A stretch of DNA of 64,000 nt from Anaerolineae bacterium (lineage in GTDB: Bacteria > Chloroflexota > Anaerolineae > Anaerolineales > Anaerolineaceae): contig JABUFD010000002.1 of assembly GCA_013314735.1 (NCBI GenBank), forward strand, positions 372,001 to 436,000, read 5' to 3'. The translations under genes and the position numbers were made by a program. This document shows, one piece after another, positions 822 to 17,151 of the stretch. The stretch's first letter is position 1, and each line of letters opens with the position of its first letter. Under the pieces are notes generated by a model. That model saw only the letters and a list, made by a program, of their open reading frames with translations. It searched no databases and had not been told where the DNA came from.

Positions 822-909
822 CGCACCCGGTTGACAGCAGGCAGCACCTTAACAATTGAATACCATTAATTTAAGAAACAGGCCGGGAAGCGGGTTTTGC
901 ATACACCTC

Positions 910-940
910 AAAAAAAGGGGCGTTTTTTTACCCTTTTTTT
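910..940 (+). terminator. Rho-independent terminator after cas6
   Basis: A perfect 10-bp stem, AAAAAAAGGG pairing with CCCTTTTTTT, encloses an 11-base loop; the T-run forms the 3' arm. The A-rich 5' arm would let it act in both directions. It separates cas6 transcription from that of the array. Confidence 0.7.
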
Positions 941-1060
941 CAAGGTGGATGCAGGAACCTTAAAGAAGGGGAAAACCCGCTCCCTGGGCGGATTTTTCCA
1001 CCACTTTGCAGGCAAAATCTGGACAAAATGGCATATATAGTGGGAATATCGTTGAAAATG

Positions 1061-1069
1061 TGGTATGAT
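1061..1069 (+). promoter_or_regulatory. Candidate extended -10 promoter of the CRISPR array
   Basis: TGGTATGAT matches the extended -10 form TGnTATAAT with one mismatch, 21 bp before the first repeat. No convincing -35 box is seen, as is common for extended -10 promoters. It would start pre-crRNA synthesis just before repeat 1. Confidence 0.4.
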
Positions 1070-1089
1070 GATGGGAGAGTGAAAGAGCA

Positions 1090-2882: not shown

Positions 2883-2936
2883 ATGACGCCTGAGGCTATA
2901 CCCGCAGGATATACAGATTAGGAGGGAGAACAAAGG

Positions 2937-3056
2937 ATGCTGTTGGATCCACTTGCAAATACTTATTGTTCATTGTTCATGGTGATTTGCGTGGGCGCGT
3001 TGATCTACTGGATCAAGATCAAGATCCGTGAACACCGGAACAAACCCAAAAAATAA
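2937..3056 (+). CDS. Small single-pass membrane protein (39 aa) between CRISPR array and cas1
   Basis: A 39-residue ORF with a strong Shine-Dalgarno AGGAGGG about 10 bases before its ATG. It begins MLLDPLANTYC, has one predicted membrane helix at about residues 12-30 (SLFMVICVGALIYWIKI) and ends in a basic tail (KIREHRNKPKK), so the tail would sit in the cytoplasm. No family is recognised. It is the first gene after the array and lies on the same strand as cas1-cas2, so it may be cotranscribed with them. The clear ribosome-binding site and membrane-protein pattern argue that it is real. Confidence 0.5.
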   Translation: MLLDPLANTYCSLFMVICVGALIYWIKIKIREHRNKPKK

Positions 3057-3087
3057 TCTCATGGGCGCCGCCTGTTCTACAGCGGGT

Positions 3088-3150
3088 AAATGGCTGGCAG
3101 ATACCAGCAAATGGCTGGCAGATACCAGCAAATGGCTGGCAGATACCAGC
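3088..3150 (+). repeat. Three perfect tandem 21-bp repeats, each able to form a hairpin
   Basis: Units run 3088-3108, 3109-3129 and 3130-3150 with no mismatch. Each contains GCTGG and CCAGC separated by six bases, so the transcript could fold into three successive 5-bp hairpins. The block lies between two small membrane-protein genes upstream of cas1. In one frame it would encode KWLADTS three times, but no ribosome-binding site supports translation. Confidence 0.9.
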
Positions 3151-3220
3151 TGCCGCGCTGCCATCAAAACGGGGGGAAGATCAAAGGAATGTTTTTTTTT
3201 ATTCATCAGGAGGGATAACA

Positions 3221-3400
3221 ATGGATGAAGCTTATCGTGTCGATGAAAGCCTGGGCGGCTGCCTGCTGCTGCCGTTCCAGCTGGCCTGGACCGTTCTGGT
3301 GATCACCGTTCAACTGGCATGGCTGCTGCTCAGCCTGGTGTTCGCTTCCGGGTTGGGTCTGCTGGCGCTGGTCGTGATCTTGTTCGCATTGGCAGGCTGA
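3221..3400 (+). CDS. Small hydrophobic membrane protein (59 aa) immediately upstream of cas1
   Basis: A 59-residue ORF beginning MDEAYRVDESLGG, with CAGGAGGG about 7 bases before the ATG. About residues 14-59 are almost wholly hydrophobic and form two likely membrane helices (LLLPFQLAWTVLVITVQLAW and LLSLVFASGLGLLALVVILF). It ends 13 bases before the preferred cas1 start, and its stop codon abuts the cas1 ribosome-binding site, so translation is probably coupled to cas1. No family is recognised. Its position suggests a role near CRISPR adaptation or membrane sensing, but that is only guilt by association. Confidence 0.55.
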   Translation: MDEAYRVDESLGGCLLLPFQLAWTVLVITVQLAWLLLSLVFASGLGLLALVVILFALAG

Positions 3401-3413
3401 GAGGAGGATGCCC

Positions 3414-4442
3414 ATGCCGCCAATCTACATCGTACAACAAGGCAGCAAAGTGCGCGTCAGCAACCGGCGCCTGCTGGTCAACCTGGAGCTTGAAGGCGAA
3501 AAACCGGAAACCCTGGTTTCGATGCCGATCAACCAGGTTTCGCAGGTGGTGCTGTTTGGCAACATCGGCATCACCACCCCTGCGATCGGCATCCTGCTGG
3601 ATGAGGGGATCGACGTTGCCTTCCTCACCCGTGACGGCCATTTCCGCGGTCACCTGACCAGCGGACTGACCCCGCATGTGCGCCTGCGCCGCGCGCAATA
3701 TCAGCGCATCGGGGATGAAGCCTTCCAGCTGCGCCTGGCAAAGGCGATTGTGAAGGCCAAATTGACCAACCAGAAATACTTCCTCAGCCGCAATGGCAGC
3801 CGCGAACGCCAGCCTGGCCTGGCGGCGATCATCGAGCGCATCGGGCTGGCTGTCGATGAGGTGGAACGCAAAACACTGCTAACCAGCCTGCGCGGCGTGG
3901 AAGGCAGCGGGGCGGCTGCGTATTTCCTCGGCTTTCACAGCTGCTTTGAGCCGGAGTGGAAGTTCGAAACCCGCAAGCGCCGTCCGCCCACAGACCCGGT
4001 CAACGCGATGCTGTCCTTCGGGTACACCTTGCTGGCACAGGCTGCCACCAGCGCGGTACAGGCGGCAGGATTCGACCCCTATGCGGGGTTCCTGCACGAG
4101 GTGGTCTACAACCGTCCCGCGCTGGGGCTGGACTTAATGGAGGAATTTCGCACCGTGGTGGATGGGATCGTGCTGCGGGCGGTCAACACCCGCGCGGTGA
4201 CGCCGCAGGATTTCGACACTGTCCACCCAGAGGGTAGTTCTGGCGCCGAGTATGCCATTTACCTGTCGGATGCCGCCAAACGCAAATTCATCCAGATGTA
4301 TGAAAACCGGATGAACAAAACCATGCTGCACCCCGAGCGCAACCAGCAGCTCAGCCTGCGCCAGTGCATCAGCGAACAGGCGCGCCAGCTGGCGCGTGGC
4401 GTGGAGCAGGACGTGGAATACAGCGGGTTATTGTTCCGCTAG
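3414..4442 (+). CDS. cas1: CRISPR-associated integrase Cas1
   Basis: Cas1 is the metal-dependent integrase that, with Cas2, inserts new spacers at the leader end. The N-terminal beta domain (PPIYIVQQGSKVRVSNRRL) and the C-terminal helical domain are both present. The metal-binding residues are visible as the Glu in LRGVEGSGAAAYF, the His in GFLHEVVYNRP and the acidic residues in LDLMEEFR. GAGGAGG (3401-3407) abuts the first ATG (3408) but is six bases from the second (3414), so 3414 is preferred, giving 342 aa. cas2 starts 11 bases downstream of the stop. Confidence 0.95.
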   Translation: MPPIYIVQQGSKVRVSNRRLLVNLELEGEKPETLVSMPINQVSQVVLFGNIGITTPAIGILLDEGIDVAFLTRDGHFRGHLTSGLTPHVRLRRAQYQRIGDEAFQLRLAKAIVKAKLTNQKYFLSRNGSRERQPGLAAIIERIGLAVDEVERKTLLTSLRGVEGSGAAAYFLGFHSCFEPEWKFETRKRRPPTDPVNAMLSFGYTLLAQAATSAVQAAGFDPYAGFLHEVVYNRPALGLDLMEEFRTVVDGIVLRAVNTRAVTPQDFDTVHPEGSSGAEYAIYLSDAAKRKFIQMYENRMNKTMLHPERNQQLSLRQCISEQARQLARGVEQDVEYSGLLFR

Positions 4443-4453
4443 GGTGGGGGCGG

Positions 4454-4741
4454 ATGGAAGAACGCGGTTTTTACCTGGTGGCGTATGACATCAGCCATAA
4501 CAAGCGCCGGACCAAGGTGGCCAGGGTGATGGAATCGGTCGGCGCGCGGGTACAGGGCAGCGTGTTTGAGGTGTGGCTGAATTCGAGGGAATTGGAAGAT
4601 ATGCAGCAGCGGCTTAAAAAAGTGCTGGCGGACAAAGAAGACAGCATTCGCATTTATTTCCTGTGCAATGCCTGCCAGAAAAAGGTGATGATCCTGGGGC
4701 AGGGCAAAAAGAACGCTGCGCCGGAGCTGGTGATTGTGTAA
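4454..4741 (+). CDS. cas2: CRISPR-associated protein Cas2
   Basis: A 95-aa protein beginning MEERGFYLVAYDIS; the YDIS strand holds the conserved Asp of the ferredoxin-like Cas2 fold, followed by RRTKVARVMESVGARVQGSVFEVWL, which matches the family pattern. Cas2 dimers bridge two Cas1 dimers in the spacer-integration complex. The start at 4454 follows GGTGGGGGC, 11 bases after the cas1 stop. It ends the cas operon; nothing on the plus strand follows before the convergent IclR gene. Confidence 0.95.
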   Translation: MEERGFYLVAYDISHNKRRTKVARVMESVGARVQGSVFEVWLNSRELEDMQQRLKKVLADKEDSIRIYFLCNACQKKVMILGQGKKNAAPELVIV

Positions 4742-5613: not shown

Positions 5614-5642
5614 TTGCAATCGGAAGTGGAATCCTGTACTAT
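5614..5642 (+). promoter_or_regulatory. Promoter of the type VII-like operon
   Basis: TTGCAA (5614-5619) and TACTAT (5637-5642) are separated by exactly 17 bases, and the -10 box is preceded by TG. It would start transcription near 5649, about 50 bases before the first gene of the operon. Confidence 0.6.
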
Positions 5643-5697
5643 CAAATCAGGGGATGGGTAACAAATACGAACCAATCAGTAATTGAGGATGTGCTTT

Positions 5698-7977
5698 GTG
5701 AAACGATCATTTCGACAAACAATCCGATGGCTGATCAGTATCATCAGCCTGCTGGCGATCACGACCGGGGTGTTGGCTCAATCCCAGGGACAGATTCGGA
5801 TCGACCTGGTCTCCACCGTGGAAAACGCGGAATCGATGGAATTGAAGGTCTACTTCAACCTCTATGATCCGGCAAGCGGCCTGCCGCTGACGGCCTCTTC
5901 GCCAGCCAGTGCTGAAATTTCTTTGCTGACCACCGACCTGACCACACCGGCTGTGATCGCCAAACCTGATCTGCCGATCTACATCACACTCGTGTTGGAC
6001 GCGAGCGGGAGTATGGCTGGCAATGCGCAAAAGCTGCGGGATGCAGCCAAGATGGCGCTCTCCAACCCGCCGGATGATGCCTATTTCGGAGTGGTACAGT
6101 TTGATGAAGGCACACTCCTGCTGCAGGATTTTACAGAGAACCTTCAACTGGTAAACTACGCCATCGACCAGTACAAGACCTCGAACAAGGCCACCTGCCT
6201 GTACGATGCCGCCTACGCGGCGGTGGAAGCCCAGGCGCAGGCACCCGTGGGCCGACGGGCGGTGATTGTTTTTACCGATGGCAAGGATGAAGGACAGGAC
6301 GGAAAACCCTGTTCGCAGAAATCGCTGACGGAACTGACCGCCAAGGCGATCGAATTGAAGGTGCCCCTGCATACGATCGGGTTGTTGAGCACTTCCGGTA
6401 ATATCAACGAAACCGAACTGCGCAATATGGCCGGCACCACCGGCGGTTACAGCGCCATGTCCAATGTCGATGAACTCCCGGCGGCGTTTTCCCGCATCAT
6501 GGAGGCGCTTAAGACCCAGATGGTATTGATCTCGACCATTTACCCGGTTAAAGGGCAGAACCAGGCAGTGATGACGGTCACGCTCCAGGACAAAACCATC
6601 CTAAACGCCGCATTCTTCCTCAATTCTGAAACTGATTACCCCGGACCGCCCAGCCCGGTCTCGATGCGCTTCGATGGGTTGCGCCTGGTGGCGGAAACCC
6701 AGACGTATGACCTGCAGCTGGCTTTGACCTCGCCGGACCTGGTCGGTTACATCAAAGTGGCGTTGTGGGATATGGATTCCGGGTCCAAGGTCAATGACTA
6801 CCAGTTTAATGATCCTGGCGATTTCAACACCTTTTCCCTGCCCACCGACCAGATGACAGCGGATCGCAAGTACGAGTTACGTATTTCTGCCATCAGCCGG
6901 GAAGACAATACGGCTTTCGTGATTGCTACCAGCGATCGGGGTGAACAAACCACTGAACTGGTTCATGAATTCAGCTTTGACCCCTCCAGCATTTACCCCG
7001 GTGCAGTAATTGACTCTGTTTCACAGGAAGGCACCGACCTGGTGCTGGCGGTATCACTGACCAATCCCAACCAGATCAGTAGTTTCGACGGTTGGCTGGT
7101 GGATGAGGAAACTAAGACCCAGGTCAAAAATTCCAACTTCTCGATCCCCTTCAGCGCTGCCAGCAGCGGCAGGCTGGTGCTGGAAACAAGGGACAGCCGC
7201 CTGCCCAGCGGGAAATACGCCGTGGTCCTGCGCCTGTTGAACGCTGAAAACGAGGTCATGTCCAGTACCCAATATGACGGTGTCGTTTTCCGCGCGCCAG
7301 GGCTGATACAGCGCATTGTGGCTGCCGTCACAGCCAAGCCGATCTTCCTCGTGATCATCGCCGCGATCGTGCTGTTGTTGGTGGTGTTCCTGATGATCTC
7401 TTCGGCACGCCAGAAATCGGTCAGTGCAACGCCTGTGATGCAGGGTCAACTGGGAAAAAAGATGAAAGGCAAGAATACGCCAGACGGTTACCAGGCGATT
7501 GCCAGCGATGAAGCCGTGCTGGCCAAACTTGACAACCCAGTGGTGCCCGTCCCGGGTGAATATTCCATGCCGGCTGCAGCGCCAAAACCGCCAGCCAAAC
7601 CCGCAGTGGATGCGACAGTGATGATGAACCAGGCAGGGACACCTGCACCCACCGTTACCGCGCCAACGCCAGCTGCACCACAAAAGGCCTTCTTAACCGC
7701 CACGCGTGGAATGAGCGGCTCATGGACGGTTGACCAGCTGCCGTATGTCATTGGGAGAACCGAAGGCAACCTGGTGCTGGATGAAAAAAGTATCTCGCGC
7801 CGCCATGTCCAGATTCAGCGAGATGCGGCTGGGCGCGAGACGATCACCGATCTGAACAGTTCCAATGGCACCCGCCTCAATGGGGTTCGGCTGGTGCCTG
7901 GTCAGGCAACTGCACTCCCGGTAGGCGCCCTGATCGACCTGGGTCCGAATGTAACCCTGCGCTTTGAGAAACGGTAG
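5698..7977 (+). CDS. Secreted VWA domain, TM helix and cytoplasmic FHA domain protein
   Basis: 759 aa from a GTG at 5698, with TTGAGG nine bases upstream; an ATG at 5689 is the alternative. Order of parts: signal peptide (KRSFRQTIRWLISIISLLAITTGVLAQ), von Willebrand A domain with a complete MIDAS start (D101-A-S103-G-S105) and the later FTDGKDE Asp, a beta-rich linker, one membrane helix at about 549-570, a Pro/Ala-rich stretch, and a C-terminal FHA domain (IGRTEGN, SISRRHVQI, LNSSNGTRLNG). The topology would place the metal-binding adhesion domain outside and the phosphothreonine-reading FHA domain inside. It is the first gene of the operon, eight bases before the first WXG100 gene, so a structural or sensing role in secretion is inferred. 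VWA-FHA pairings also occur in unrelated signalling contexts. Confidence 0.85.
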   Translation: MKRSFRQTIRWLISIISLLAITTGVLAQSQGQIRIDLVSTVENAESMELKVYFNLYDPASGLPLTASSPASAEISLLTTDLTTPAVIAKPDLPIYITLVLDASGSMAGNAQKLRDAAKMALSNPPDDAYFGVVQFDEGTLLLQDFTENLQLVNYAIDQYKTSNKATCLYDAAYAAVEAQAQAPVGRRAVIVFTDGKDEGQDGKPCSQKSLTELTAKAIELKVPLHTIGLLSTSGNINETELRNMAGTTGGYSAMSNVDELPAAFSRIMEALKTQMVLISTIYPVKGQNQAVMTVTLQDKTILNAAFFLNSETDYPGPPSPVSMRFDGLRLVAETQTYDLQLALTSPDLVGYIKVALWDMDSGSKVNDYQFNDPGDFNTFSLPTDQMTADRKYELRISAISREDNTAFVIATSDRGEQTTELVHEFSFDPSSIYPGAVIDSVSQEGTDLVLAVSLTNPNQISSFDGWLVDEETKTQVKNSNFSIPFSAASSGRLVLETRDSRLPSGKYAVVLRLLNAENEVMSSTQYDGVVFRAPGLIQRIVAAVTAKPIFLVIIAAIVLLLVVFLMISSARQKSVSATPVMQGQLGKKMKGKNTPDGYQAIASDEAVLAKLDNPVVPVPGEYSMPAAAPKPPAKPAVDATVMMNQAGTPAPTVTAPTPAAPQKAFLTATRGMSGSWTVDQLPYVIGRTEGNLVLDEKSISRRHVQIQRDAAGRETITDLNSSNGTRLNGVRLVPGQATALPVGALIDLGPNVTLRFEKR

Positions 7978-7985
7978 GTATCCTG

Positions 7986-8873
7986 ATGGCAGACCAGACG
8001 ATTGTCAATTATGACCTGTTGAGCCAGTTTGAGAAGGTGTTTGACACCCAGCAAGAAGAGACCAGCCGCGATATCAGTGAACTCCGCCAGAAGGCGCAGG
8101 CACTCGAGAGCGAGTGGATCGGTCAGGCAGCTGATAAATTCTTTGATGAGTTTTATGAAGAACTGATGCCCGGAATGGATCGGCTGCGCCATGCCTTCCA
8201 GATCACGGCCGAGGTGTTAAAAAAGATCGCCAGGGTCTTCGATGAAGCCGAGAACGAAGGCGCCCAATACTTCCGCGAGGACAGCCTGGAGGGTGGCGAC
8301 GGCGGGATTGATGTCACCGGCCTGGATTTTAATACCTTTGGCGGTATCGGTGGTACCACACCAGAAAGCGGCGGGATTGATGCCACCCGGATCGATTTTA
8401 ACGCGTTTGATGGGATTGAAACCGGCGGTTCGGGGGGCGGTGGTGGGCAATCCGGTGGTGAGCAGGGGACATCCGGCCAGGGACAGGTCTTTGACAATCC
8501 ACAGGACCAGCCGTCTGAATTCGGGGATCAAAGTCAATCGGGTGGGATGGCTGGCGGAGGCGGCGGTGGCTCGCAGGGCGGTGGAAATGACCAACTGCGG
8601 ATGGGAGTGGGCACTGGCAACCAGGTGGGCACAGCCGGGCAAGAAACCGGAGGCGGTTCGGGCAGCCAGATGGAGGACCATATCTATGAATCCGGTGGTG
8701 GCGGTGGCGGTGGTCAGCAAAGCCAGAATCAGGCCGCACAGGGGGCCGGGCAGGAGGGGACGGGTGACCAACAAGGTGGAAGCGTATTAGGCGCAGCCGG
8801 GGCCGTAGGGGGGATGGCGGCAGCGGCCGGAAGCATACGAAACGCTGGAAAACGCAAGAAAGAAGATGAGTAA
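7986..8873 (+). CDS. WXG100-type protein with long Gly-rich C-terminal tail
   Basis: 295 aa. Residues 1-100 form the WXG100 helical hairpin with W44-I-G46 at the turn, and Y95-F-R-E-D99 fits the YxxxD/E secretion signal of type VII substrates. Instead of stopping near residue 100, the protein continues into a 195-residue low-complexity tail. The tail begins with two copies of a GGID(V/A)TxxDFNxF unit, 23 residues apart (about 107 and 130), then Gly/Gln/Ser-rich sequence, and ends with an Ala/Gly hydrophobic stretch and a basic KRKKEDE end. It may be a secreted substrate or a structural tip protein. Antisense and shifted ORFs over the tail are by-products of its GGN codons. Confidence 0.85.
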   Translation: MADQTIVNYDLLSQFEKVFDTQQEETSRDISELRQKAQALESEWIGQAADKFFDEFYEELMPGMDRLRHAFQITAEVLKKIARVFDEAENEGAQYFREDSLEGGDGGIDVTGLDFNTFGGIGGTTPESGGIDATRIDFNAFDGIETGGSGGGGGQSGGEQGTSGQGQVFDNPQDQPSEFGDQSQSGGMAGGGGGGSQGGGNDQLRMGVGTGNQVGTAGQETGGGSGSQMEDHIYESGGGGGGGQQSQNQAAQGAGQEGTGDQQGGSVLGAAGAVGGMAAAAGSIRNAGKRKKEDE

Positions 8874-8994
8874 CACTGGAAAGGAGGTTTCTATCGATCC
8901 AACACAGGCTCATTCACAAAACTTCAACGATATAACGAGAACGAATTCTCAAACTCTCACCAAATTACAAGAAAGGATCAGGACCTATGGCTGA
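8866..8994 (+). CDS. Candidate 42-aa protein overlapping both flanking WXG100 genes
   Basis: The ATG at 8866 overlaps the end of the preceding gene (stop 8871-8873), and its TGA at 8992-8994 overlaps the next gene's start (ATG 8987), so the ORF fills the gap exactly in the manner of translational coupling. The product is hydrophilic and helix-prone (SQNFNDITRTNSQTLTKLQ, then ERIRTYG), much like one arm of a WXG100 hairpin. The upstream AAGAAAG is only a moderate ribosome-binding site, and an internal AAGGAGG is not near a start codon. It may be a real small partner or chance. Confidence 0.35.
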   Translation: MSNTGKEVSIDPTQAHSQNFNDITRTNSQTLTKLQERIRTYG

Positions 8995-9295
8995 TAATAC
9001 GCAGGTCAATTACGATATCCTGGAAGGCATTGAGAAACGATTCGAAAATGCCTCCAGCGAAACGACCGCCAATATTTCCCAGTTTCGCCAGAAGGTGGAG
9101 GAACTGCATGGTAATGGATGGGTCGGACAGGCAGCGGATAAGTTTTATGCCGAGATGAATGATGAAATCCTGCCCGCTGTCCAGCGGTTGGCCGAAGCTT
9201 ACGGCACGGCAGCCGAAGTGTTGAAGAAAATCCGTGAAACGTTCAGCAGCGCTGAAGAAGAAACCCAGGGTTACTTCAATGCGCTGGGTGAATAA
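8987..9295 (+). CDS. WXG100-family protein (EsxA-like)
   Basis: 102 aa, the standard WXG100 size, with W45-V-G47 between two helices. The N-terminus (MADNTQVNYDILEGIEKRF) and the stretch GQAADKFYAEMNDEI closely follow the preceding Gly-tailed protein, so the two are paralogues. Such proteins form helical-bundle dimers that are exported by, and activate, the FtsK/SpoIIIE motor. AGGATCAGG precedes the start. No YxxxD/E signal is seen at the C-terminus, which ends YFNALGE. Confidence 0.9.
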   Translation: MADNTQVNYDILEGIEKRFENASSETTANISQFRQKVEELHGNGWVGQAADKFYAEMNDEILPAVQRLAEAYGTAAEVLKKIRETFSSAEEETQGYFNALGE

Positions 9296-9306
9296 GGAGG
9301 TACCGA

Positions 9307-9600
9307 ATGGCTGAAAAAATTCGCGTCAATTACGAAGCACTGGAAGAAATGGCGAACATCTGCATGAAAAACTATGAGAACCTGGAACAGGTTCTGACCA
9401 ACATCCGGCAGATTGCCAACCAGCTCACCAGTGAAGCCCTGGTGGGGGATGTCGGGCAGGCATTCAGTGATGCCCTCACCGGTCCGTTCTCCAACTCAGT
9501 TAAAAAACTGGGCGAGAAATTCAAGGAAGTCTCGGATGATATTCACGGCGCCATCAACGATATGAAGTCGGCTGACAGTACCGCTGGCGGAAATTTTTAG
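9307..9600 (+). CDS. WXG100-like protein lacking the Trp
   Basis: 97 aa of two helices with a short central turn. The turn reads L45-V-G47 in place of W-x-G, followed by DVGQAFSDAL, which aligns with GQAADKF in its neighbours. An AAGGAGG lies seven bases before the ATG. Loss of the Trp is known in the partner subunit of some heterodimeric pairs, so it could pair with one of the neighbouring WXG proteins. Confidence 0.75.
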   Translation: MAEKIRVNYEALEEMANICMKNYENLEQVLTNIRQIANQLTSEALVGDVGQAFSDALTGPFSNSVKKLGEKFKEVSDDIHGAINDMKSADSTAGGNF

Positions 9601-9610
9601 GAGGTAAAGC

Positions 9611-9943
9611 ATGATCGGAAGAATTATTCGAATTGCCCGTTCCATTGTACGGGGGATCATCAACCAGATCAAACAGCAGGTGAACATGATCCAGAACATG
9701 GTGACATCTCCGTTGCGCACCATTGTCAGCGAAGTCACGGGCGGCATCTGGAAGGGGGATGGTGCTGACCGCTTTGTGAACGAGATGACGTCCGAAGTGA
9801 TTCCCGCCCTGACCAACATTGCCAACGTCAACATGAGCTTCGGGAACCAGATCGAAAAGGCACTGGACCGGATGGATCAGGCTGAGCAAACCGCCAAGAA
9901 CCTGGTCAATCCGCTGCATGACCTGTTCAGCAAAATCTTCTAG
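9611..9943 (+). CDS. WXG100-like protein with basic N-terminal helix
   Basis: 110 aa. W47-K-G49 followed by DGADRFVNEM marks the WXG turn, and helices lie on both sides. It differs from its neighbours in a strongly amphipathic, basic first helix (MIGRIIRIARSIVRGIINQI) that could lie on a membrane. AGGAGG precedes the ATG by six bases, and the gap to the previous gene is ten bases, so it is cotranscribed. Confidence 0.75.
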   Translation: MIGRIIRIARSIVRGIINQIKQQVNMIQNMVTSPLRTIVSEVTGGIWKGDGADRFVNEMTSEVIPALTNIANVNMSFGNQIEKALDRMDQAEQTAKNLVNPLHDLFSKIF

Positions 9944-9958
9944 TAGGAGTGAATCATT

Positions 9959-10255
9959 ATGGCTGATGAAGTATATATGGATATTCCCCAGGTTGAACGA
10001 ATGGCCAAATCATTCGATACCTTCGGCGATACACTCGAAATGGTCTCGAAAGTGCTGCAAGGGATCAGTATTACCCTGAAAGTCAGCGCATTTCTGACCC
10101 TGGGTGGTTCCGCTGCCGCGGCGGCGATGATCGACCGCATCCAACCCCGCTTGAAGAAGCTGGGTGAGAAAATGGTGGAACTGTCCGGCGATATCACCAG
10201 TGCGGTGAAAGCGTACCGGGACGGTGACCTGTCTGGTTCACGTCGATTTGTTTGA
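9959..10255 (+). CDS. Small helical protein, divergent WXG100-like
   Basis: 98 aa beginning MADEVYMDIPQVERMAKSFDTFG. The size and two-helix layout match WXG100 proteins, but there is no Trp-x-Gly; the middle holds a hydrophobic Gly/Ala stretch (SAFLTLGGSAAAAAMIDRI). The C-terminal helix is GEKMVELSGDITSAVKAYRDGD. It ends the run of small genes, and a 150-bp structured gap follows before the machine genes. It is similar to WXG/LXG-accessory proteins of Gram-positive type VII loci, but the assignment is by context. Confidence 0.6.
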   Translation: MADEVYMDIPQVERMAKSFDTFGDTLEMVSKVLQGISITLKVSAFLTLGGSAAAAAMIDRIQPRLKKLGEKMVELSGDITSAVKAYRDGDLSGSRRFV

Positions 10256-10271
10256 TTTAAAATTCAGGAGA

Positions 10272-10346
10272 AGGACTGGCATCCCCGTGGTGTCTGGACC
10301 GTTTTTTTCGCAATGCGCGAGCAAAGCAACAGGATATGCCAGTCCT
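10272..10346 (+). other. Long-range inverted repeat between substrate and machine genes
   Basis: AGGACTGGCAT (10272-10282) pairs perfectly with ATGCCAGTCCT (10336-10346) across a 53-base loop. The loop itself contains a seven-T run and a smaller TCGC/GCGA hairpin. The outer flanks (GAGAA and TTCTC) could extend the stem after a bulge. It may attenuate transcription between the abundant small proteins and the motor genes, or protect the 3' end of the upstream mRNA. Confidence 0.6.
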
Positions 10347-10408
10347 GTTCTTCTCTTATTGACAGTATGATTCCAACCTTGACCGGTTCCCAGGGAAAGC
10401 GATAGCCC

Positions 10409-11479
10409 ATGAAGCGAATATGCCAGAAATGTAATGTCATCTCCCATGACCTGAACTTATGGTGCCAGGAAAAAGATTGTCCCGCAGAGGATGCCACGGA
10501 AATATTTGACAATGGTGAGTGGTTTGGGCCGATGGAGATTGTGCAGCCGATCGCGATCAACCGGTCTGCCATCATCTACCAGGCCCGCAGGGGCGAGGAA
10601 CTGGTCTTGCTCAAGGTCGCCAACGTTGGGTGTGAACAAAAGTTAAAAAGCGAGGCGAAAGCGTTCCTTGAACTGGCAAAAGTCGGGCAGCACCCTTGCC
10701 TGCCAGTACTGCTGGCAGCGCATCCCAACGGTGACCTGGCGCAGCATCCGTATGGTTGGACCGTGATCAATGGCCGGGTCAAGTTTTACATGGTCTTTGC
10801 CTATGCGGAAGGCGCGTTGCTTTCAAATCTGCTGCTGAAAAACCCGCAGCCATGGTACCAGCACGCAGCATGGATTGTCTTGAGCATTGCTGATGCAGTC
10901 CTGTACTTGCACAAGGCCAATAAATTGCACCTGTGCCTGAAGCCGGATATGGTCCTGGTACGCTATGACAAGCAAGGTTACCCGCGGCCGTTGTTGCTGG
11001 ATTTGGGGGTCAGTGATCCTGGCCCGGCGATACCCGCCTTCTGGGATGAAAGTTATAACCTCCCGGCATATACCGCCCCGGAAATCCTGAATGGGCGCGG
11101 CCCGGTCAGCGCGGCCACAGATGTCTATGGGCTGGGTTTGCTGCTGTACGAGATGCTCGCCGGCCATCCCGCTTTCGAGTACCATTTGAAACGGGAAAAA
11201 TTGGTGATCCACCATGTGCAGCAGGGAAAACATGCACCCAGCGGCAGGATCGATCTGACACATATCCCGGATGTGGTCGAAAAAGCGATCCAGATGGAGC
11301 CAGGCCTGCGGTATAGCGATGTAGGCGCTCTCTTCGCTGCACTCAGCCCCGTGTTGCCCAAACTGCCGGCAGAGCAAAAACCCAAGAAAATGAATTGGCG
11401 GGTGCTGTTCATTATCCTGGGTACGTTGCTGGCGATCTCGCTCCTGTTGGGATTGGCGATCGCCATGGTACCGGTATAA
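10409..11479 (+). CDS. Membrane-anchored pseudokinase with N-terminal zinc ribbon (EssB-like role)
   Basis: 356 aa. A four-Cys zinc ribbon (C5, C8, C19, C24) is followed by a protein-kinase fold (about 40-300) and a C-terminal membrane helix (about 331-351). The kinase Lys is kept (LLKV, K69), as are the APE (223-225) and the subdomain IX Asp (D238-V-Y-G). But HRDLKPEN reads HLCLKPDM, replacing the catalytic Asp with Cys176 and the Mg-binding Asn with Met181, and DFG reads DLG. It should not phosphorylate. Firmicutes type VII systems contain EssB/YukC, a single-pass membrane pseudokinase; the same combination here, just upstream of the motor gene, suggests the same role, though EssB has a domain beyond the helix that is missing here. 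Confidence 0.8.
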   Translation: MKRICQKCNVISHDLNLWCQEKDCPAEDATEIFDNGEWFGPMEIVQPIAINRSAIIYQARRGEELVLLKVANVGCEQKLKSEAKAFLELAKVGQHPCLPVLLAAHPNGDLAQHPYGWTVINGRVKFYMVFAYAEGALLSNLLLKNPQPWYQHAAWIVLSIADAVLYLHKANKLHLCLKPDMVLVRYDKQGYPRPLLLDLGVSDPGPAIPAFWDESYNLPAYTAPEILNGRGPVSAATDVYGLGLLLYEMLAGHPAFEYHLKREKLVIHHVQQGKHAPSGRIDLTHIPDVVEKAIQMEPGLRYSDVGALFAALSPVLPKLPAEQKPKKMNWRVLFIILGTLLAISLLLGLAIAMVPV

Positions 11480-11532
11480 ACAGGCTGCCGCCCGTTTTTC
11501 TTATCTCGTGAATAACCAGGAACAGGTGTCCC

Positions 11533-14500
11533 GTGACAGATAAATTCTTCATTGACCGCCCCCCTCGTGTTGAGCCAGAGCTTCCCTCCGGCATTTACTC
11601 CATTCCCAACCCGCCGGATATTGAAGATGACCCGCGCCAGGTGATATCCCAGGCGATGCTGCCCATGATCATGATCCTCGGCTACGTGCTGGTATCCTTG
11701 TTTGGGCAGGGCCGGAATATGCTGATGATGATCCCGATGATGCTGTCGGTGATCGCCTCGGTGGCACTGGCGTTCTATACGATTGCACAAACCCGCAAGA
11801 AAAAAGAGGAGATGGAAGGGGCTTACAAGCGGCGCATCAGTGAACTGCGGCGCAAGATGGAAAGTGAACACGAACAGCAGCGAATTTATTACTTTCATAA
11901 TTACCCTGAACCAGAAAAAAACCTGCAGATGGCGGCGGACATCAATCGCGCGGTGGAAGAGCGCATTGAGGATATCCGTTCCGGCACGCGGTTATGGGAA
12001 CGGCGCCCAACAGACCACGATTTCCTGTACCTGCGCCTGGGATTGAGCAGCCGGGCATCGAGTGTAACTTACAAAATTTCTGAAAACGAAAAGACTGATA
12101 GCTCCCTGATGTTGGAAGCGATCCGCCTGGCTGAAGATTCACGGATGTTGTTTGATGTGCCGGTAACGATCCCGCTCTTCGCTCAGGTGGATGAGTCCGA
12201 ACAAAAGAAAGTGGAGTCAAAAACTGAGGATGTGGGTGGGGCGAAATCCGATGTGCAATCCCAGGAAAGCAAAGGAATCACGGTGCGGCATGCGCTCGGG
12301 ATCACCGGTTCTTCCAAAGAAAAGCTGTATGCCTACCTGCAGACTCTGCTGATCGATTACACCGCTCACCACAGCCCGCAAGATGCGATGCTGTACGTTG
12401 CAGGGACGAATGAATCCCGGATGAACTGGCGTTGGGCATATGCCCTGCCGCACTGCAAAGAGGCCGACCAGACTTCAACCTTGTGTTTTGAGGAAGAGGA
12501 ATTGCCGGATGAGAACGAAGTTGATCGCATGCGCTTGTTCTGGCGCAACCTGCGTACCGTGTTGGAACGACGGCGGATGCGGCTGCAGGACCGTGAAAGC
12601 GGTGCTGATGTGCGCCTCCCGTTCTTGCTGGTCGTGGTCGATGTGCAAACTGCAACGCCGGGGTGGTCGGCGCTGCATGATCTGGAAGGGGAGGCAACGA
12701 TCTCGACCATCCTGATGGATGGTCAGTTGCTGGGGGCAGGGATCATTTTCCTGGTGCCGGAACGCGCCAAAGTGCCCAGCCGCTGTAACGCGGTAATTGA
12801 GGTGGATGAAGGCAGTGATCCTTATTCTGCCGTATTCCGCTACGCTGAAACGGGTTTTAACACGCTGCGTTACGTGGGAAACACCAACCTGGTGCCCAGC
12901 CAGGAAATGGCAAGGAATTTCTCCCGCCACCTGGAACCACTCGACATTCGGCGTGGGTATGGTTCTTCTCTGGCTTCTACGGTGACACTCCTCGAAATGT
13001 TGAATGTAACCACGATTGAAGAATTGTTGACAATGGCCCGAGAGAACTGGCAGCGCAGTATGCAGCCCAACGTGGCGGATTGGCTGTACACCGCAGTTGG
13101 TTTGCTGTCGGGCAATGAACCACGCGTACTCAAGTTTTCTGCCAAGGCTGATGGTGTGCATGGTGTGATCGCCGGTTCGACGGGTTCGGGGAAGTCTGAA
13201 CTGCTGATGACTCTGATCATCGGCCTGGCATTGAATTTCAACCCGGATGTGTTGAACTTCGTCCTGATCGACTACAAAGGTGGTGCAGCCTTTGAACCCT
13301 TTAAGCGCCTGCCGCACAAGGTTGATATTGTGACCAACCTGGATTCCTCGGCAGTGGCACGCGTCTTCGCCTCGATCATCGCCGAACTCGACCGCCGCCA
13401 AAAATTGAATACATATACCAACTCCAAGGATATTGTGCATTACCGCAAAAAGGGGCTCAACCTGGATCCCAAGCGCCCGCCATACCCGCACCTGTTCATC
13501 ATTATCGATGAGTTCGCGGAAATGATTGCTGGTAATGCTGAATACAAGGCGCAGTTGGAGTCGATCACCCGCCTGGGGCGTGCCCTGGGTGTGACCCTGA
13601 TCCTCGCCGCCCAGCGTCCAGCTGGCATCACCGACCAGATGAGAGCCAATATCAAGTTCCGCATCTGCCTGCGGGTGGAAACCCCTGATGACAGCCGTGA
13701 GGTGCTGAGGCGCGCTGATGCCGCCTTCCTCCCCCCTGGGATTCCCGGTCGCGGTTATTTACAGATCGGGAACGAGAACATTGAGTTGATCCAGACTGCC
13801 TACACGGGGGGTGATTATAAAGGACCGCAGGAGGAAAATGTATCACCGAACGTGATCTGGCTCGATCGTGCGCGTAAATCTGAGGCGCAAAAAGCGGCTG
13901 AACCCCCCAAGCTGTATGACGTGGTGGTGGAGATGCTCAACAACCTTGCCGAGCAGGAATCGCGCCCCCAGTGGCGGCCATGGCCGGAGTTTCTGCCCAA
14001 CCAGAGTGGCAATACTGTACTCACACTGAGTACTCCGGTCGACACAGCTTACATGAATGATGACGATGTCGACCTCCTGCGCGGTGGTGAAACCGAACAA
14101 ACTGGGCGGCCGATGCTCAACCCGCGCTCCACGGTGATCTGGGAGGATGATTTTGATTGGCACGGCATTGGCTGGGGCAAGACTGCGATGCGGCCGCTGA
14201 TCGGGCTGATAGACAACCCCTACCAGGCCAGCCAGAAACCTTTGCTGATCAATTTCACTGCCGGTCATGCGGTCATTTTTGGCGCTTCCGGGCGTGGCAA
14301 GACCACCTTCTTGCGTACCATCATTACCAGCCTGGCCCTGACACATTCGCCGGATGAGCTCCATATTTATATATTCGATTTTGGCGGCCGGGCACTCACT
14401 TTCCTGGTCGATTTGCCGCATGTGGGGGCGGTGATCACGGCAGAAGAAGAAGAACGCGTGTTGCGTGGCCTGCGAAAGGTGAATGAGATTGTAGAGCAGC

Positions 14501-16059
14501 GCCAGGTGTTGTTCAGCGAGGCACGGGTTAACAGCCTGGATTCGTATAACCTGGCTCATCCTGACAGCCCCTTACCAGCGGTACTGGTGGTGCTGGACAA
14601 CTTTGCAGAATTCAAGGAATATTATGAAAACCTGATGGGACCGCTGACCTCGATCATCCGCGAAGGGCGCGCGTACGGGGTGCACTTCCTGATCTCGGCT
14701 GACATGCCAAATGCGCTCTCAAGCAAGCTCTTCAACCTGATTACCGAACGCTATACGCTGAAATTGTCGGATCCGACCGAGTACAGTACCATTGTCGGGC
14801 GCGGAGTTCCTGCGGACCTCAGCCCGGTGCCGGGGCGCGGTTATGTGCGCGTGGGGAACCAACCGCTGGAATTCCAGACCGCTCTGACCTTCCCAACCAC
14901 AGAAAATGATCCGGATGGGATGGCGGAGATAGGACGGATGTGCAAGCGGATGAGCGCGATATGGGCTGAACGCTGGCAGGGCGAAAAGCCGTCCACGATC
15001 GAAACCCTGATGGTCCGCCTTTCGTTGGATAACCTGTTGCTGCAGGCGGAGATTCCCGCTACCCGTCGCCTGAACGCGATCATCGGCATTGATGACCGCT
15101 CCCTCGAACCCGCGGTGATCGACATCGAACGCCAGGGTCCGCATATGATGGTGATCGGGCAGCCTTTCTCCGGAAAAACGACGACCCTGCGTACTCTGAT
15201 CCTATCCCTCACCTACCATTATTCCCCGGATGATGTGATGATGGTTCTGATCGATTATTCACGCAAGTTATGGAAAGGCGGGGAAACCTCGCTGGCAGAC
15301 CTGCCGCATGTGGTGCAGACTGTGGAAGAATTGGACCAGCTCGATCTCTTGCTGGCCAACCTTCAATACGAATGTGCCGATTTTGATGCGCACCCCAAAC
15401 GGCGTAAGGTTATGATCTTTATCGATAATTATGACGCCTTTACCGATGAATCCAGCCGCAAGAAAAGTGCCTTCTTTGAATCCACCGCTGCGCTGGTGCG
15501 CAAATACCAGACGGCAGGTGTGTACATGGTGGTGGCCGGGTCTGTTTCCATCACCGGTTCCTCTGATGATTTGCGGAAGGTTTTTGCGGCCCCCAACTTC
15601 GGGATCGCACTGAAGAGTGCCGATGCCGTCAACCGACTGTATGGGAAGTTCCCGCGTAGCCTGGCTGACAGCGAATTGCCCCAGGGACGCGGCTTCACCG
15701 TACAATCCGGGATTACCAAGATGCTGCAAATCGCCACCCCCTACGCCAATGATGAAGATGTCGAGGGTTCGATGGACAGCTGGGTGCGCAAGATCCAGAA
15801 ACGCCATCCTGTTGACAGGGCGCAATGGATGCGGCCGGCAGAAGAGATACCAGGCGAAACCAGCGGTGAAGAAAAACCGGCGGTAGCTGTGTTGACCTCG
15901 AGTCGCAATATGGCCAAATATGATCTGCCGGCAATTAAGAAAGCTTTGCTCGAAAACGGTTTTCCGGAAGAGATGCTGGCGATCCTTTCAGATAGTGATA
16001 TCGTGGAGACAGCAATCGGGATGGGCCTGGCAGCGGATGACACTGCCCCCACCCAATAA
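11533..16059 (+). CDS. Type VII secretion motor, EccC/EssC-like FtsK/SpoIIIE ATPase
   Basis: 1508 aa from a GTG. Two membrane helices (about 41-58 and 63-84) are followed by three FtsK-type ATPase domains. Walker A motifs are GSTGSGKS (548-555), GASGRGKT (917-924) and GQPFSGKT (1209-1216); the matching Walker B Asp residues are at about 659 (IIIDEFAEM), 1022 (VVLDNFAEF) and 1298 (FIDNYDAF). This three-motor layout is diagnostic of EccC/EssC, the hexameric engine that recognises WXG100 substrates and drives export. Unlike Firmicutes EssC it has no N-terminal FHA pair; FHA domains are instead found on two separate proteins of this operon. Only the first domain keeps the full DE Walker B pair. 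Confidence 0.95.
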   Translation: MTDKFFIDRPPRVEPELPSGIYSIPNPPDIEDDPRQVISQAMLPMIMILGYVLVSLFGQGRNMLMMIPMMLSVIASVALAFYTIAQTRKKKEEMEGAYKRRISELRRKMESEHEQQRIYYFHNYPEPEKNLQMAADINRAVEERIEDIRSGTRLWERRPTDHDFLYLRLGLSSRASSVTYKISENEKTDSSLMLEAIRLAEDSRMLFDVPVTIPLFAQVDESEQKKVESKTEDVGGAKSDVQSQESKGITVRHALGITGSSKEKLYAYLQTLLIDYTAHHSPQDAMLYVAGTNESRMNWRWAYALPHCKEADQTSTLCFEEEELPDENEVDRMRLFWRNLRTVLERRRMRLQDRESGADVRLPFLLVVVDVQTATPGWSALHDLEGEATISTILMDGQLLGAGIIFLVPERAKVPSRCNAVIEVDEGSDPYSAVFRYAETGFNTLRYVGNTNLVPSQEMARNFSRHLEPLDIRRGYGSSLASTVTLLEMLNVTTIEELLTMARENWQRSMQPNVADWLYTAVGLLSGNEPRVLKFSAKADGVHGVIAGSTGSGKSELLMTLIIGLALNFNPDVLNFVLIDYKGGAAFEPFKRLPHKVDIVTNLDSSAVARVFASIIAELDRRQKLNTYTNSKDIVHYRKKGLNLDPKRPPYPHLFIIIDEFAEMIAGNAEYKAQLESITRLGRALGVTLILAAQRPAGITDQMRANIKFRICLRVETPDDSREVLRRADAAFLPPGIPGRGYLQIGNENIELIQTAYTGGDYKGPQEENVSPNVIWLDRARKSEAQKAAEPPKLYDVVVEMLNNLAEQESRPQWRPWPEFLPNQSGNTVLTLSTPVDTAYMNDDDVDLLRGGETEQTGRPMLNPRSTVIWEDDFDWHGIGWGKTAMRPLIGLIDNPYQASQKPLLINFTAGHAVIFGASGRGKTTFLRTIITSLALTHSPDELHIYIFDFGGRALTFLVDLPHVGAVITAEEEERVLRGLRKVNEIVEQRQVLFSEARVNSLDSYNLAHPDSPLPAVLVVLDNFAEFKEYYENLMGPLTSIIREGRAYGVHFLISADMPNALSSKLFNLITERYTLKLSDPTEYSTIVGRGVPADLSPVPGRGYVRVGNQPLEFQTALTFPTTENDPDGMAEIGRMCKRMSAIWAERWQGEKPSTIETLMVRLSLDNLLLQAEIPATRRLNAIIGIDDRSLEPAVIDIERQGPHMMVIGQPFSGKTTTLRTLILSLTYHYSPDDVMMVLIDYSRKLWKGGETSLADLPHVVQTVEELDQLDLLLANLQYECADFDAHPKRRKVMIFIDNYDAFTDESSRKKSAFFESTAALVRKYQTAGVYMVVAGSVSITGSSDDLRKVFAAPNFGIALKSADAVNRLYGKFPRSLADSELPQGRGFTVQSGITKMLQIATPYANDEDVEGSMDSWVRKIQKRHPVDRAQWMRPAEEIPGETSGEEKPAVAVLTSSRNMAKYDLPAIKKALLENGFPEEMLAILSDSDIVETAIGMGLAADDTAPTQ

Positions 16060-16074
16060 GGCAGGATGTGAGAC

Positions 16075-17151
16075 ATGGCAAACGAAGAATATATCGATGT
16101 GGAATTTGACATATTTGAGTACACCGGCCAACGGGCGCGAGTGAAGCGAAACCTGTCCGTTAAACTGCTGATTGATGAAATCCTGCGGGAATTTGATGAT
16201 ATTCCTTCCGATCCCGCCAACCGCTACGTGCTTTACCTCAAAGGATTGGACAAACCGCTGGACAATGACAAAACGTTGACAGATCTCGATATCCAGCCGC
16301 AGGATGAACTGGTGTTTGACCGTTATCGCACCTTGCTGCGGCAGGAATTGCCGGAGGATGTGAGTGCGTATTTTGTAGAGGAAAAGAGCGCGGAGGTGTT
16401 TGATGTGCATTGGCAACCAGCCATCATCGGGCGTTCCAGCACCGATATGGATCACAATTTCTCACTGGCTGTCAACCTGCAATATCTGCCTGAAGGAAAA
16501 ACCATCTCCCGGCGCCACGCGGTGGTGACCTATGCCAATCATCATTTCTGGCTCGAACCCCAGGCGGAGAATAACCCGGTCTACCTGAACGCCAAGGAAA
16601 TGCCGTTCGGGAAACGATTTGAAATTAAGGACGGTGATAAGGTTCAACTGGGTTTCAACCACGTTACCCTGACCTTCAAACAACGCAAAATCAATGTCAG
16701 CCAGCAAAGCTCAACAGAACCGGTGGTAGCACCGAAACCCGTTGTCAGCCAGACAGTGGTGGAAATGCCGGCGCAGGTCCCATCTGATTCGGCGACCCAC
16801 ATGATGAATGAGGAGGGTGGTACTGCATTGATTGATTTCAACAGTTCTCCGGAGCTGGTGATCGAAACAGCAGTTAACCCCCAGGTGGTTGGGCAGGCGA
16901 TCCCCCTATCCGCTTTTCCGATGGTGATTGGCAGAAACCATCCATTGCTGGTCTATGAACGGGATATCTCGCGGCAGCACCTGGAATTCATGTTCGATCC
17001 CCGGGCCAACAAGTATTATATCCGTGACATGAACAGCACCAATGGGGTGTGGTTGAATGAGGTGGAAATTGCACCGAATATCGCCCACGAAGTGGAGCCC
17101 GGCAGCCGCATTCGGCTGGGGAAGGTGGCGACATTCCTGTTCCGGGTGTGA
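16075..17151 (+). CDS. YukD/EsaB ubiquitin-like domain fused to two FHA domains
   Basis: 358 aa. Residues 1-85 read as the ubiquitin-like YukD/EsaB fold (VEFDIFEYTGQRARVKRNLSV, then LTDLDIQPQDELVF). FHA1 spans about 110-205 (AIIGRSS, TISRRHAVV) and FHA2 about 265-358 (MVIGRNH, DISRQHLEF, DMNSTNGVWLNE). No membrane helix is present. In Firmicutes YukD/EsaB is a separate small cytoplasmic regulator, and the FHA pair sits on EssC; here the two are joined in one soluble adaptor. It follows the motor gene by 15 bases and ends the operon. Confidence 0.88.
   Translation: MANEEYIDVEFDIFEYTGQRARVKRNLSVKLLIDEILREFDDIPSDPANRYVLYLKGLDKPLDNDKTLTDLDIQPQDELVFDRYRTLLRQELPEDVSAYFVEEKSAEVFDVHWQPAIIGRSSTDMDHNFSLAVNLQYLPEGKTISRRHAVVTYANHHFWLEPQAENNPVYLNAKEMPFGKRFEIKDGDKVQLGFNHVTLTFKQRKINVSQQSSTEPVVAPKPVVSQTVVEMPAQVPSDSATHMMNEEGGTALIDFNSSPELVIETAVNPQVVGQAIPLSAFPMVIGRNHPLLVYERDISRQHLEFMFDPRANKYYIRDMNSTNGVWLNEVEIAPNIAHEVEPGSRIRLGKVATFLFRV

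What the first reader, a model, noticed from the sequence alone, without database searches (positions are those of the whole stretch)
5614..17151. Rearranged type VII-like secretion locus with FHA and VWA parts
Seen: one operon with a VWA-TM-FHA protein, five WXG100-type proteins, a TM pseudokinase, a three-ATPase EccC/EssC-like motor and a YukD-FHA-FHA fusion. Known: Firmicutes type VII systems use EsxA, YukD/EsaB, EssB (pseudokinase), EssC (FHA pair on the motor), EssA and EsaA; actinobacterial ones use EccB/C/D/E and MycP. Here the EssC FHA pair has moved to YukD, EssA/EsaA and EccB/D/E are missing, and a VWA receptor is added. Inference: a distinct subtype, possibly with the VWA protein as outer part of the channel.
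Basis: partly seen in the sequence, partly recalled or inferred. Interest (0 to 1): 0.78.

Follow-up and report, generated by a model that had tools for sequence, protein, structure and literature searches.

The report
Chloroflexota type VII secretion subtype
The locus encodes a complete-looking protein-export machine, a new branch of the type VII secretion family in the bacterial phylum Chloroflexota, built around a dead kinase, phosphate-reading domains and a surface receptor, and many of its relatives have fused three copies of the motor into one giant protein.

Summary
Nine same-strand genes (5689-17151) encode a VWA-TM-FHA protein, five WXG100-type proteins, a TM pseudokinase, a three-ATPase EccC/EssC motor without FHA domains, and YukD-FHA-FHA. 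The order recurs in 14 of 14 adequately flanked loci of the window's clade; flanking genes are shared by at most 5 of 15. In 121 related genomes the clade motor and YukD-FHA occur in the same 10, never alone. A motor scan gave 79 loci (capped list), all but two titled Chloroflexota. EssA, EssB, EsaA, EccB and EccD are not detected in the genome, with ringing controls. The motors form one clade apart from the T7SSa, T7SSb and other Chloroflexota motors compared. Best reading: a phylum-specific T7SS subtype, nearest in parts to T7SSc/T7SSh, not seen in the papers searched. Corrections: the EssC FHA pair did not move (YukD with one FHA is the common form), and the VWA protein looks like a receptor, not a channel. 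Unexpected: 29 of 71 uncut motor frames are (D1-D2)x3-D3. Secretion itself is inferred.

The parts
5689..7977 (+). VWA-TM-FHA protein: hydrophobic N-terminal signal, extracellular VWA domain with intact MIDAS (DASGS at residue 106, TTG-start numbering) and beta domains, one TM (~554), disordered linker, cytoplasmic FHA with GR/SRRH/N motif
7986..8873 (+). W1: WXG100 domain with long Gly/Ser/Gln-rich tail ending in an Ala/Gly stretch plus a charged tail; candidate substrate or surface component
8987..9295 (+). W2: WXG100 protein (WVG turn); WxG kept in 52 of 56 aligned
9307..9600 (+). W3: WXG100-like protein without W in the turn (0 of 55 aligned have WxG)
9611..9943 (+). W4: WXG100 protein (WKG turn); WxG in 54 of 54 aligned
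9959..10255 (+). W5: WXG100-like protein without WxG (0 of 55 aligned); weak Pfam score, called by conservation and position
10409..11479 (+). Pseudokinase: N-terminal four-Cys motif, PknB-like fold, catalytic HRD Asp replaced (HLC), VAIK Lys and DFG-type Asp kept, C-terminal TM and almost no ectodomain
11533..16059 (+). EccC/EssC-type motor: two TM segments at about 37 and 63 with no room for FHA domains before them, three FtsK-like ATPase domains (Walker A at 548, 917, 1209)
16075..17151 (+). YukD-FHA-FHA: ubiquitin-like domain fused to two FHA domains with pThr-binding motifs

Best explanation
The locus is one operon for a phylum-specific type VII secretion subtype. SHOWN: its parts, their conserved order, co-occurrence of motor and YukD-FHA, a motor clade of its own, loss of the kinase's catalytic Asp with retention of the ATP-binding Lys and DFG Asp, intact MIDAS and pThr motifs. 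INFERRED: the FtsK-like motor forms a ring at the cytoplasmic membrane and exports WXG100 proteins as two pairs (W2 with W3 and W4 with W5, each a WxG member with a non-WxG member) plus the long-tailed W1. The YukD domain docks on the motor as EccD's ubiquitin-like domain does on EccC, and its FHA part takes over the motor-to-pseudokinase link that EssC's own FHAs make with EssB. The pseudokinase is a membrane scaffold, possibly ATP-sensing. The VWA-FHA protein is a surface receptor whose cytoplasmic FHA joins the same phospho-threonine network, so that outside binding and a separate Ser/Thr kinase gate the motor.
For: 79 motor-anchored loci, the best of 133 relatives. Of 48 with at least 6 kb upstream and 3 kb downstream: YukD-FHA 48, pseudokinase 47, W2/W3/W4/W5 43 each, VWA 35 (33 with FHA), long WXG 33. 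Gene order in 14 of 14 such two-FHA loci, one with extra WXG genes, against flank sharing of at most 5 of 15 loci. Motor and YukD-FHA in the same 10 of 121 genomes, neither alone. HRD Asp replaced in 66 of 66 (C25, G24, A9, N8; one further row gapped), VAIK Lys in 63 of 63 (four gapped), DFG Asp in 66 of 66. FHA GR and SR invariant in 33 of 33 YukD-FHA proteins; VWA MIDAS D106, S108, T171, D199 and FHA G691, R692, S705, H708 invariant in 29. WxG alternation W2 52/56, W3 0/55, W4 54/54, W5 0/55. Kinase fold: pLDDT 89.7, PknB Z 27.9. Active-looking kinases in 15 and PP2C in 13 of the 79 loci. FHA-pseudokinase contact in T7SSb: PMC9600267 passages. EccD ubiquitin-like domain on EccC: PMC11217815 Discussion.
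Against: No secretion, complex or expression data. A full VWA protein is not found within reach in 13 of 48 loci (two of these, L129 and L158, keep a relative matching only the stalk and FHA parts) and its position varies. In 7 of 48 loci at least one of W2-W5 is not found at the thresholds used (L111, L123, L142 and L150 lack all four; L093, L115 and L155 lack one or two). Neither an active kinase nor a PP2C is detected in the 64 kb window, so the phospho-switch must be served from elsewhere. YukD did not bind the YukB ATPase by two-hybrid in B. subtilis (PMC9600267), so docking by the ubiquitin-like domain may not carry over. YukD itself is a weak sequence call. No complex was modelled.
Confidence: 0.7

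Rival explanations
1. It is a Chloroflexota member of a subtype already named in Bacillota, T7SSc (vWA, kinase, PPM phosphatase, FHA-less motor) or T7SSh (kinase-like TshM with C-terminal TM, FHA-less motor).
For: Shared parts: FHA-less motor, YukD-like protein, vWA, kinase-like membrane protein (PMC11217815). TshM topology matches the pseudokinase here. PP2C and active kinases occur in some sister loci.
Against: Kinase dead in 66 of 66 whereas TscD keeps its active site; the VWA protein has a signal, a TM and an FHA whereas TscE is cytosolic; four conserved WXG100 proteins instead of one; YukD fused to FHA; no PPM found in the window. T7SSc-j are reported only from Bacillota and Actinomycetota in that paper. 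No T7SSc/h sequences could be fetched, so no direct tree test.
Confidence: 0.17
2. The export core is W2-W5, pseudokinase, motor and YukD-FHA; the VWA-FHA protein is a neighbouring adhesion or signalling protein, not part of the machine.
For: VWA found in 35 of 48 loci against 47-48 for pseudokinase and YukD-FHA; its place and strand vary in sister loci, and in G077 it lies on another contig.
Against: In the window's sub-clade it is first in the operon in 14 of 14, 8 bases from W1, and it carries an FHA like its partner.
Confidence: 0.3
3. A DNA-translocation or anti-phage module built on an FtsK/HerA-like ATPase, with WXG100 proteins incidental.
For: PADLOC models mad8 (187 bits) and SspH (171 bits) match the motor and mad6/PD-T4-6 match the kinase.
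Against: The best stretches of those hits lie in single ATPase domains (e.g. motor 540-726) or the kinase domain; the matches spanning the motor are to EssC/EccC, and W2-W5 accompany it in 43 of 48 loci each.
Confidence: 0.03

Closest known systems
T7SSc (TscA-TscG; Garrett et al. 2024, PMC11217815)
   Same: FHA-less EccC/EssC motor, WXG100, ubiquitin-like protein, vWA protein, kinase-like membrane protein
   Different: Here the kinase is catalytically dead; VWA has a signal, a TM and an FHA; YukD is fused to FHA; four to five WXG100 proteins; no PPM phosphatase found in the window; different phylum
T7SSh (TshA, B, C, G, M; PMC11217815)
   Same: FHA-less motor; kinase-like protein with a single C-terminal TM and no ectodomain
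   Different: No VWA or FHA component is described there; Tad pilus neighbourhood and EspG-like TshG in T7SSh
T7SSb (Ess/Yuk)
   Same: Motor family, WXG100, ubiquitin-like protein, membrane pseudokinase, FHA domains
   Different: No EssA, EssB or EsaA family match; FHA sits on YukD, not on the motor; FHA pThr residues kept; pseudokinase keeps VAIK Lys and DFG Asp, whereas YukC cannot bind ATP (PMC9600267)
T7SSa (ESX)
   Same: FHA-less EccC-type motor and paired WXG100 proteins
   Different: No EccB or EccD; no MycP over the cut-off; kinase, FHA and VWA parts instead
TerY-P triad (VWA, kinase, PP2C; recalled, from no call)
   Same: VWA, kinase and PP2C together, as in some sister loci
   Different: No secretion motor or WXG100 proteins (recalled)

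Membership tests
T7SS (general) | EccC/EssC FtsK/SpoIIIE ATPase plus WXG100 protein(s) (definition in PMC4010439) | tested here: met
   W2-W5 each in 43 of 48 loci
T7SS (general) | Secretion of the WXG100 proteins | not testable with these tools
   No experiment possible
T7SSb | EssB/YukC (PF10140) | tested here: not met
   0 of 16 genomes; control B. subtilis rings
T7SSb | EsaA (TIGR03929) | tested here: not met
   0 of 16 genomes; control B. subtilis rings
T7SSb | EssA (PF10661) | tested here: not met
   0 of 3 Chloroflexota genomes; control B. subtilis rings, but the L. fermentum T7SSb plasmid put in as a second control did not
T7SSb | FHA pair on the motor N-terminus | tested here: not met
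   First TM at about residue 37 leaves no room; no FHA among the 25 best Pfam families of the motor
T7SSa | EccB (PF05108) | tested here: not met
   0 of 16 (nothing rang) and 0 of 3 with the control plasmid ringing at 2.9e-154
T7SSa | EccD (TIGR03920) | tested here: not met
   0 of 16 (nothing rang) and 0 of 3 with the control plasmid ringing at 1.6e-62
T7SSa | MycP (TIGR03921) | tested here: inconclusive
   Only matches under the cut-off (best in own genome 136.8 bits against 278.75); the control plasmid's own match, 275.2 bits, is also under it; none of the matches lies on the locus
T7SSa | EccE | not tested
T7SSc | FHA-less motor | tested here: met
T7SSc | Kinase with conserved active site (TscD) | tested here: not met
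   Catalytic Asp replaced in 66 of 66
T7SSc | Cytosolic vWA without signal peptide or TM (TscE) | tested here: not met
   Hydrophobic N-terminal segment (~14) and TM at ~554
T7SSc | PPM phosphatase (TscF) in the cluster | tested here: not met
   No hit in the window with a single-sequence PP2C query (limited sensitivity); the same query finds 13 of 79 sister loci
T7SSc | EspG-like chaperone (TscG) | tested here: inconclusive
   A ~264-aa partner family resembling EspG (recalled) is found in sister loci but not in the window; no EspG among PDB sequence matches
T7SSh | TshM orthology | not testable with these tools
   No T7SSh sequence was obtained
T7SSh | Tad pilus genes next door | not tested
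   Immediate neighbours are IclR, CRISPR-Cas and LCP genes; Tad was not searched for

The most novel reading that the evidence does not exclude
Chloroflexota carry their own T7SS subtype in which a surface VWA receptor, a YukD-FHA adaptor and a dead kinase form a phospho-threonine switch on the motor, and in which evolution has fixed motor stoichiometry by fusion: 29 of 71 uncut motor frames (including Herpetosiphon aurantiacus DSM 785) are single chains of (D1-D2)x3-D3, so that two chains would supply the six catalytic D1 domains of a T7SS hexamer with only two D3 domains. If so, D3 need not be six-fold and the working motor is a hexamer of D1-D2 modules.
Probability: 0.35. Interest if true: 0.82.

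Novelty: new variant of a known kind. Interest (0 to 1): 0.63.

Why it matters
T7SS work rests on Actinomycetota and Bacillota. In the passages I read, Chloroflexota are credited with some WXG100 sequences or predicted ESX systems and nothing more (PMC3935865, PMC4010439, PMC10765036). A well-delimited subtype in a third phylum, with relatives in cultured Herpetosiphon, shows which parts of a T7SS can be absent (EssA/EsaA, EccB/EccD) and which may be kept in another form (pseudokinase plus FHA plus ubiquitin-like domain). The fused seven-ATPase motors of its sisters give a natural test of the assembled motor's symmetry and of the role of D3.

Tried and rejected
Pure chance or annotation noise: rejected by order conservation in 14 of 14 loci against at most 5 of 15 for flanking genes.

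A second, normal T7SS elsewhere in the genome: not found.

FHA pair moved en bloc from EssC: rejected; one-FHA forms are the majority.

Pseudokinase as an EssB orthologue: no PF10140 match. EssB does not appear among the 50 rows shown of the structural comparison, which is no evidence either way because other kinases fill the list.

EspG identity of the ~264-aa partner in sister loci: not confirmed. It was not found in the window.

Plasmid carriage: 42 plasmid records match the motor at E<=1e-40, all at under 40% identity and none counted as covering 80% of it in one place.

PADLOC hits rest on single ATPase domains or the kinase domain. Promoter and terminator scans were within about one standard deviation of shuffles.

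One origin of the giant motors: grouping copy 1 of all 12 tested giants is rejected (p-AU 1e-82), but grouping all 36 copies as one clade is not (p-AU 0.398). Two independent triplications are favoured, but one origin followed by gene conversion remains possible. Trees were 'quick' searches; the motor tree (built, shown) used LG+G4 without mixture, and the tool warned of long branches meeting, among them the outgroup row next to the 77-motor clade, and of odd letter make-up in 12 rows.

Rows dropped: 12 motor frames at contig ends were left out of the architecture census, leaving 71 of 83. 31 of the 79 loci had too little flank for the co-occurrence count. Of the 71, 9 gave other domain strings (extra weak D1/D2/D3 hits, or broken frames). 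The locus list itself was capped at the best 80 of 133 relatives.
Full report
WHAT IS THERE. The window is G000:C11:372001-436000 of a 4.09 Mb genome in 13 contigs. Nine + strand genes with gaps of 8-153 bases encode, in order, VWA-TM-FHA, W1, W2, W3, W4, W5, a pseudokinase, the motor and YukD-FHA-FHA. Domain calls are from Pfam and NCBIfam. The two weakest, W5 (17.7 bits) and YukD (24.7 bits against a cut-off of 27), are supported by conservation. The gene before is an IclR regulator on the other strand, and the gene after, 350 bases on, is a LytR-CpsA-Psr protein.

IS IT ONE UNIT. A motor-only query of the named genome collection found 133 relatives and kept the best, 79 loci. All bear Chloroflexota names but for two MAG titles (Bacteroidetes L149, Melainabacteria L158), which nest among Chloroflexota motors and are probably misbinned. 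Partners were not used in that query. In six frames, of the 48 loci with at least 6 kb upstream and 3 kb downstream, 48 have YukD-FHA, 47 the pseudokinase, 43 each W2, W3, W4 and W5, 35 a VWA (33 with FHA), and 33 a long WXG protein. Of the 13 without a VWA, two keep a relative that matches only the stalk and FHA parts, and the genome of one (L107, the same contig as G077:C546) has a VWA-FHA protein on another contig. In the window's sub-clade (two FHA domains) 14 of 14 such loci keep the order VWA-W1-W2-W3-W4-W5-pseudokinase-motor-YukD; one of them (L113) has extra WXG genes. As a control, 134 flanking ORFs (120 aa or more) of the same loci plus the window fall into 108 clusters, the broadest in 5 of 15 loci. 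In 121 related genomes, 75 hit the YukD-FHA query at E<=0.001, nearly all through FHA domains alone, but only 10 match over 55 bits to its YukD-FHA1 half; the same 10 hold the clade motor (827 bits or more), and nine more genomes hold only distant motors (240 bits or less). In four of the ten the match covers mainly FHA1; there the short protein sits next to the motor (L071-L074; in L072 and L074 next to motor fragments at contig ends).

WHAT IS MISSING. EssB 0 of 16 genomes (control rings) and EsaA 0 of 16 (control rings). EccB and EccD 0 of 16 without any control ringing, then 0 of 3 with the M. vanbaalenii plasmid ringing. EssA 0 of 3 with B. subtilis ringing, though a T7SSb plasmid added as a second control did not ring. 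MycP: only matches under the cut-off, as in generic subtilase genomes. EccE not tested.

THE PARTS. Pseudokinase: the HRD Asp is C, G, A or N in 66 of 66 aligned sequences, the VAIK Lys is kept in 63 of 63 and the DFG Asp in 66 of 66; gapped rows set aside. Four Cys at the N-terminus are invariant in 41 sequences. The model (pLDDT 89.7) matches PknB at Z 27.9, rmsd 2.8, 251 aligned. This differs from YukC, in which these motifs are partly missing and which cannot bind ATP (PMC9600267, passages). YukD-FHA: GR and SR of the first FHA are invariant in 33, unlike the T7SSb FHAs. By length, two-FHA forms are 18 of 66. VWA: P98, D106, S108, T171, D199 and the FHA residues G691, R692, S705, H708 are invariant in 29 sequences, S110 in at least 90%; the model has mean pLDDT 83.1 but pTM 0.50, with a helix at 553-580 and a low-confidence linker 581-663, and its VWA matches 4fx5 at Z 24.7, rmsd 2.1, 176 aligned. 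WXG set: WxG in the turn for W2 52 of 56, W3 0 of 55, W4 54 of 54, W5 0 of 55, which suggests two WxG/non-WxG pairs. W1 ends in an Ala/Gly stretch and a charged tail that recurs in its relatives.

THE MOTOR AND ITS RELATIVES. The window motor has three Walker A sites; in the 33 plain three-domain motors D1 has Walker B DE in 33, while D2 and D3 show DN in 28 and 27. In a tree of 96 motors, the 77 of this kind separate from 19 others (four plasmid T7SSa- and T7SSb-type motors and 15 other Chloroflexota motors) at SH-aLRT 100, with a long-branch warning. Of 71 motor frames not cut by a contig end, 33 are D1-D2-D3 and 29 are (D1-D2)x3-D3, 2,871-3,060 aa but for one of 2,177, among them four Herpetosiphon species; 9 gave other strings. 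None showed exactly two or four D1-D2 modules before D3. The three D1 copies keep DE in 28, 29 and 28 of 29. Copies 1, 2 and 3 are each a clade across ten giants, while two giants (L071, L073) group their own copies. A shared copy-1 clade is rejected, but one clade of all copies is not. ESX-5 carries six EccC (PMC8131196, passages), so a dimer of giants would supply six D1; this is inference.

HOW IT PROBABLY WORKS. See Best explanation. Candidate cargo in sister loci includes a WXG100 protein with a weak cutinase/lipase-like C-terminus, under Pfam's cut-off (L107:11616-12704). Active-looking kinases occur in 15 and PP2C in 13 of 79 loci, which could supply the phosphorylation that the conserved pThr-reading FHAs need; neither was found in the window.

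COMPARED WITH PRINT. Garrett et al. 2024 (PMC11217815; abstract, Methods, Results parts 1 and 2 of 3, and Discussion read, passages) describe T7SSc-j in Bacillota and Actinomycetota only, and the main text holds no word beginning 'Chlorofle'. T7SSc and T7SSh are the nearest in parts. Chloroflexota are mentioned as having some WXG100 sequences or predicted ESX systems (passages of PMC3935865, PMC4010439, PMC10765036). Searches for 'type VII secretion' with Chloroflexota gave 2 papers and with Herpetosiphon 0; the other searches were seen as listings, mostly capped. No paper on this cluster or on fused seven-ATPase motors was seen, in an open-access library without subscription papers or preprints.

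VERDICT. Observation confirmed; interpretation partly supported; new variant of a known kind.

Noticed in passing
L118, L126 (Herpetosiphon aurantiacus DSM 785), L119, L071, L073 and others: Giant T7SS motors of about 2,870-3,060 aa (one frame 2,177 aa) with seven ATPase domains, (D1-D2)x3-D3, in 29 of 71 uncut motor frames; possibly evolved twice.
   Followed up: yes
L143:20708-21499, L134:23146-23937, L119:21261-22052, L126:21169-21984: A ~264-aa family encoded after long WXG proteins in sister loci; the sequence resembles EspG chaperones (recalled), unconfirmed by Pfam or PDB sequence search; not in the window.
   Followed up: partly
L107:11616-12704: WXG100 domain fused to a weak cutinase/lipase-like domain, directly downstream of YukD-FHA: a candidate effector.
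   Followed up: partly
L143:22662-24059 and neighbours; L134, L155: Sister loci with VWA and active-looking PknB-like kinases, and in L143 and L155 also PP2C, next to the motor operon: a possible phospho-regulatory set.
   Followed up: partly
L165-L176, L079-L081: Other, distant T7SS-type motors (about 28-38% identity) in Chloroflexota whose neighbourhoods do not show the pseudokinase/W3-W5/YukD-FHA set (L167 and L168 have distant FHA relatives), so the phylum seems to hold more than one T7SS kind.
   Followed up: partly
window 15-4741: CRISPR locus just upstream: Cas6 (15-821), a 24-repeat array (1070-2882, 37-nt repeat unit), Cas1 (3408-4442), an ORF with Cas2 (4364-4741).
   Followed up: partly
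W1-type C-termini, window 8740-8870 and L082-L100, L119, L128, L143, L146: Long WXG proteins share a C-terminal hydrophobic Ala/Gly (or AASPFxALLGK) stretch followed by a charged tail, like a sorting or docking signal.
   Followed up: no
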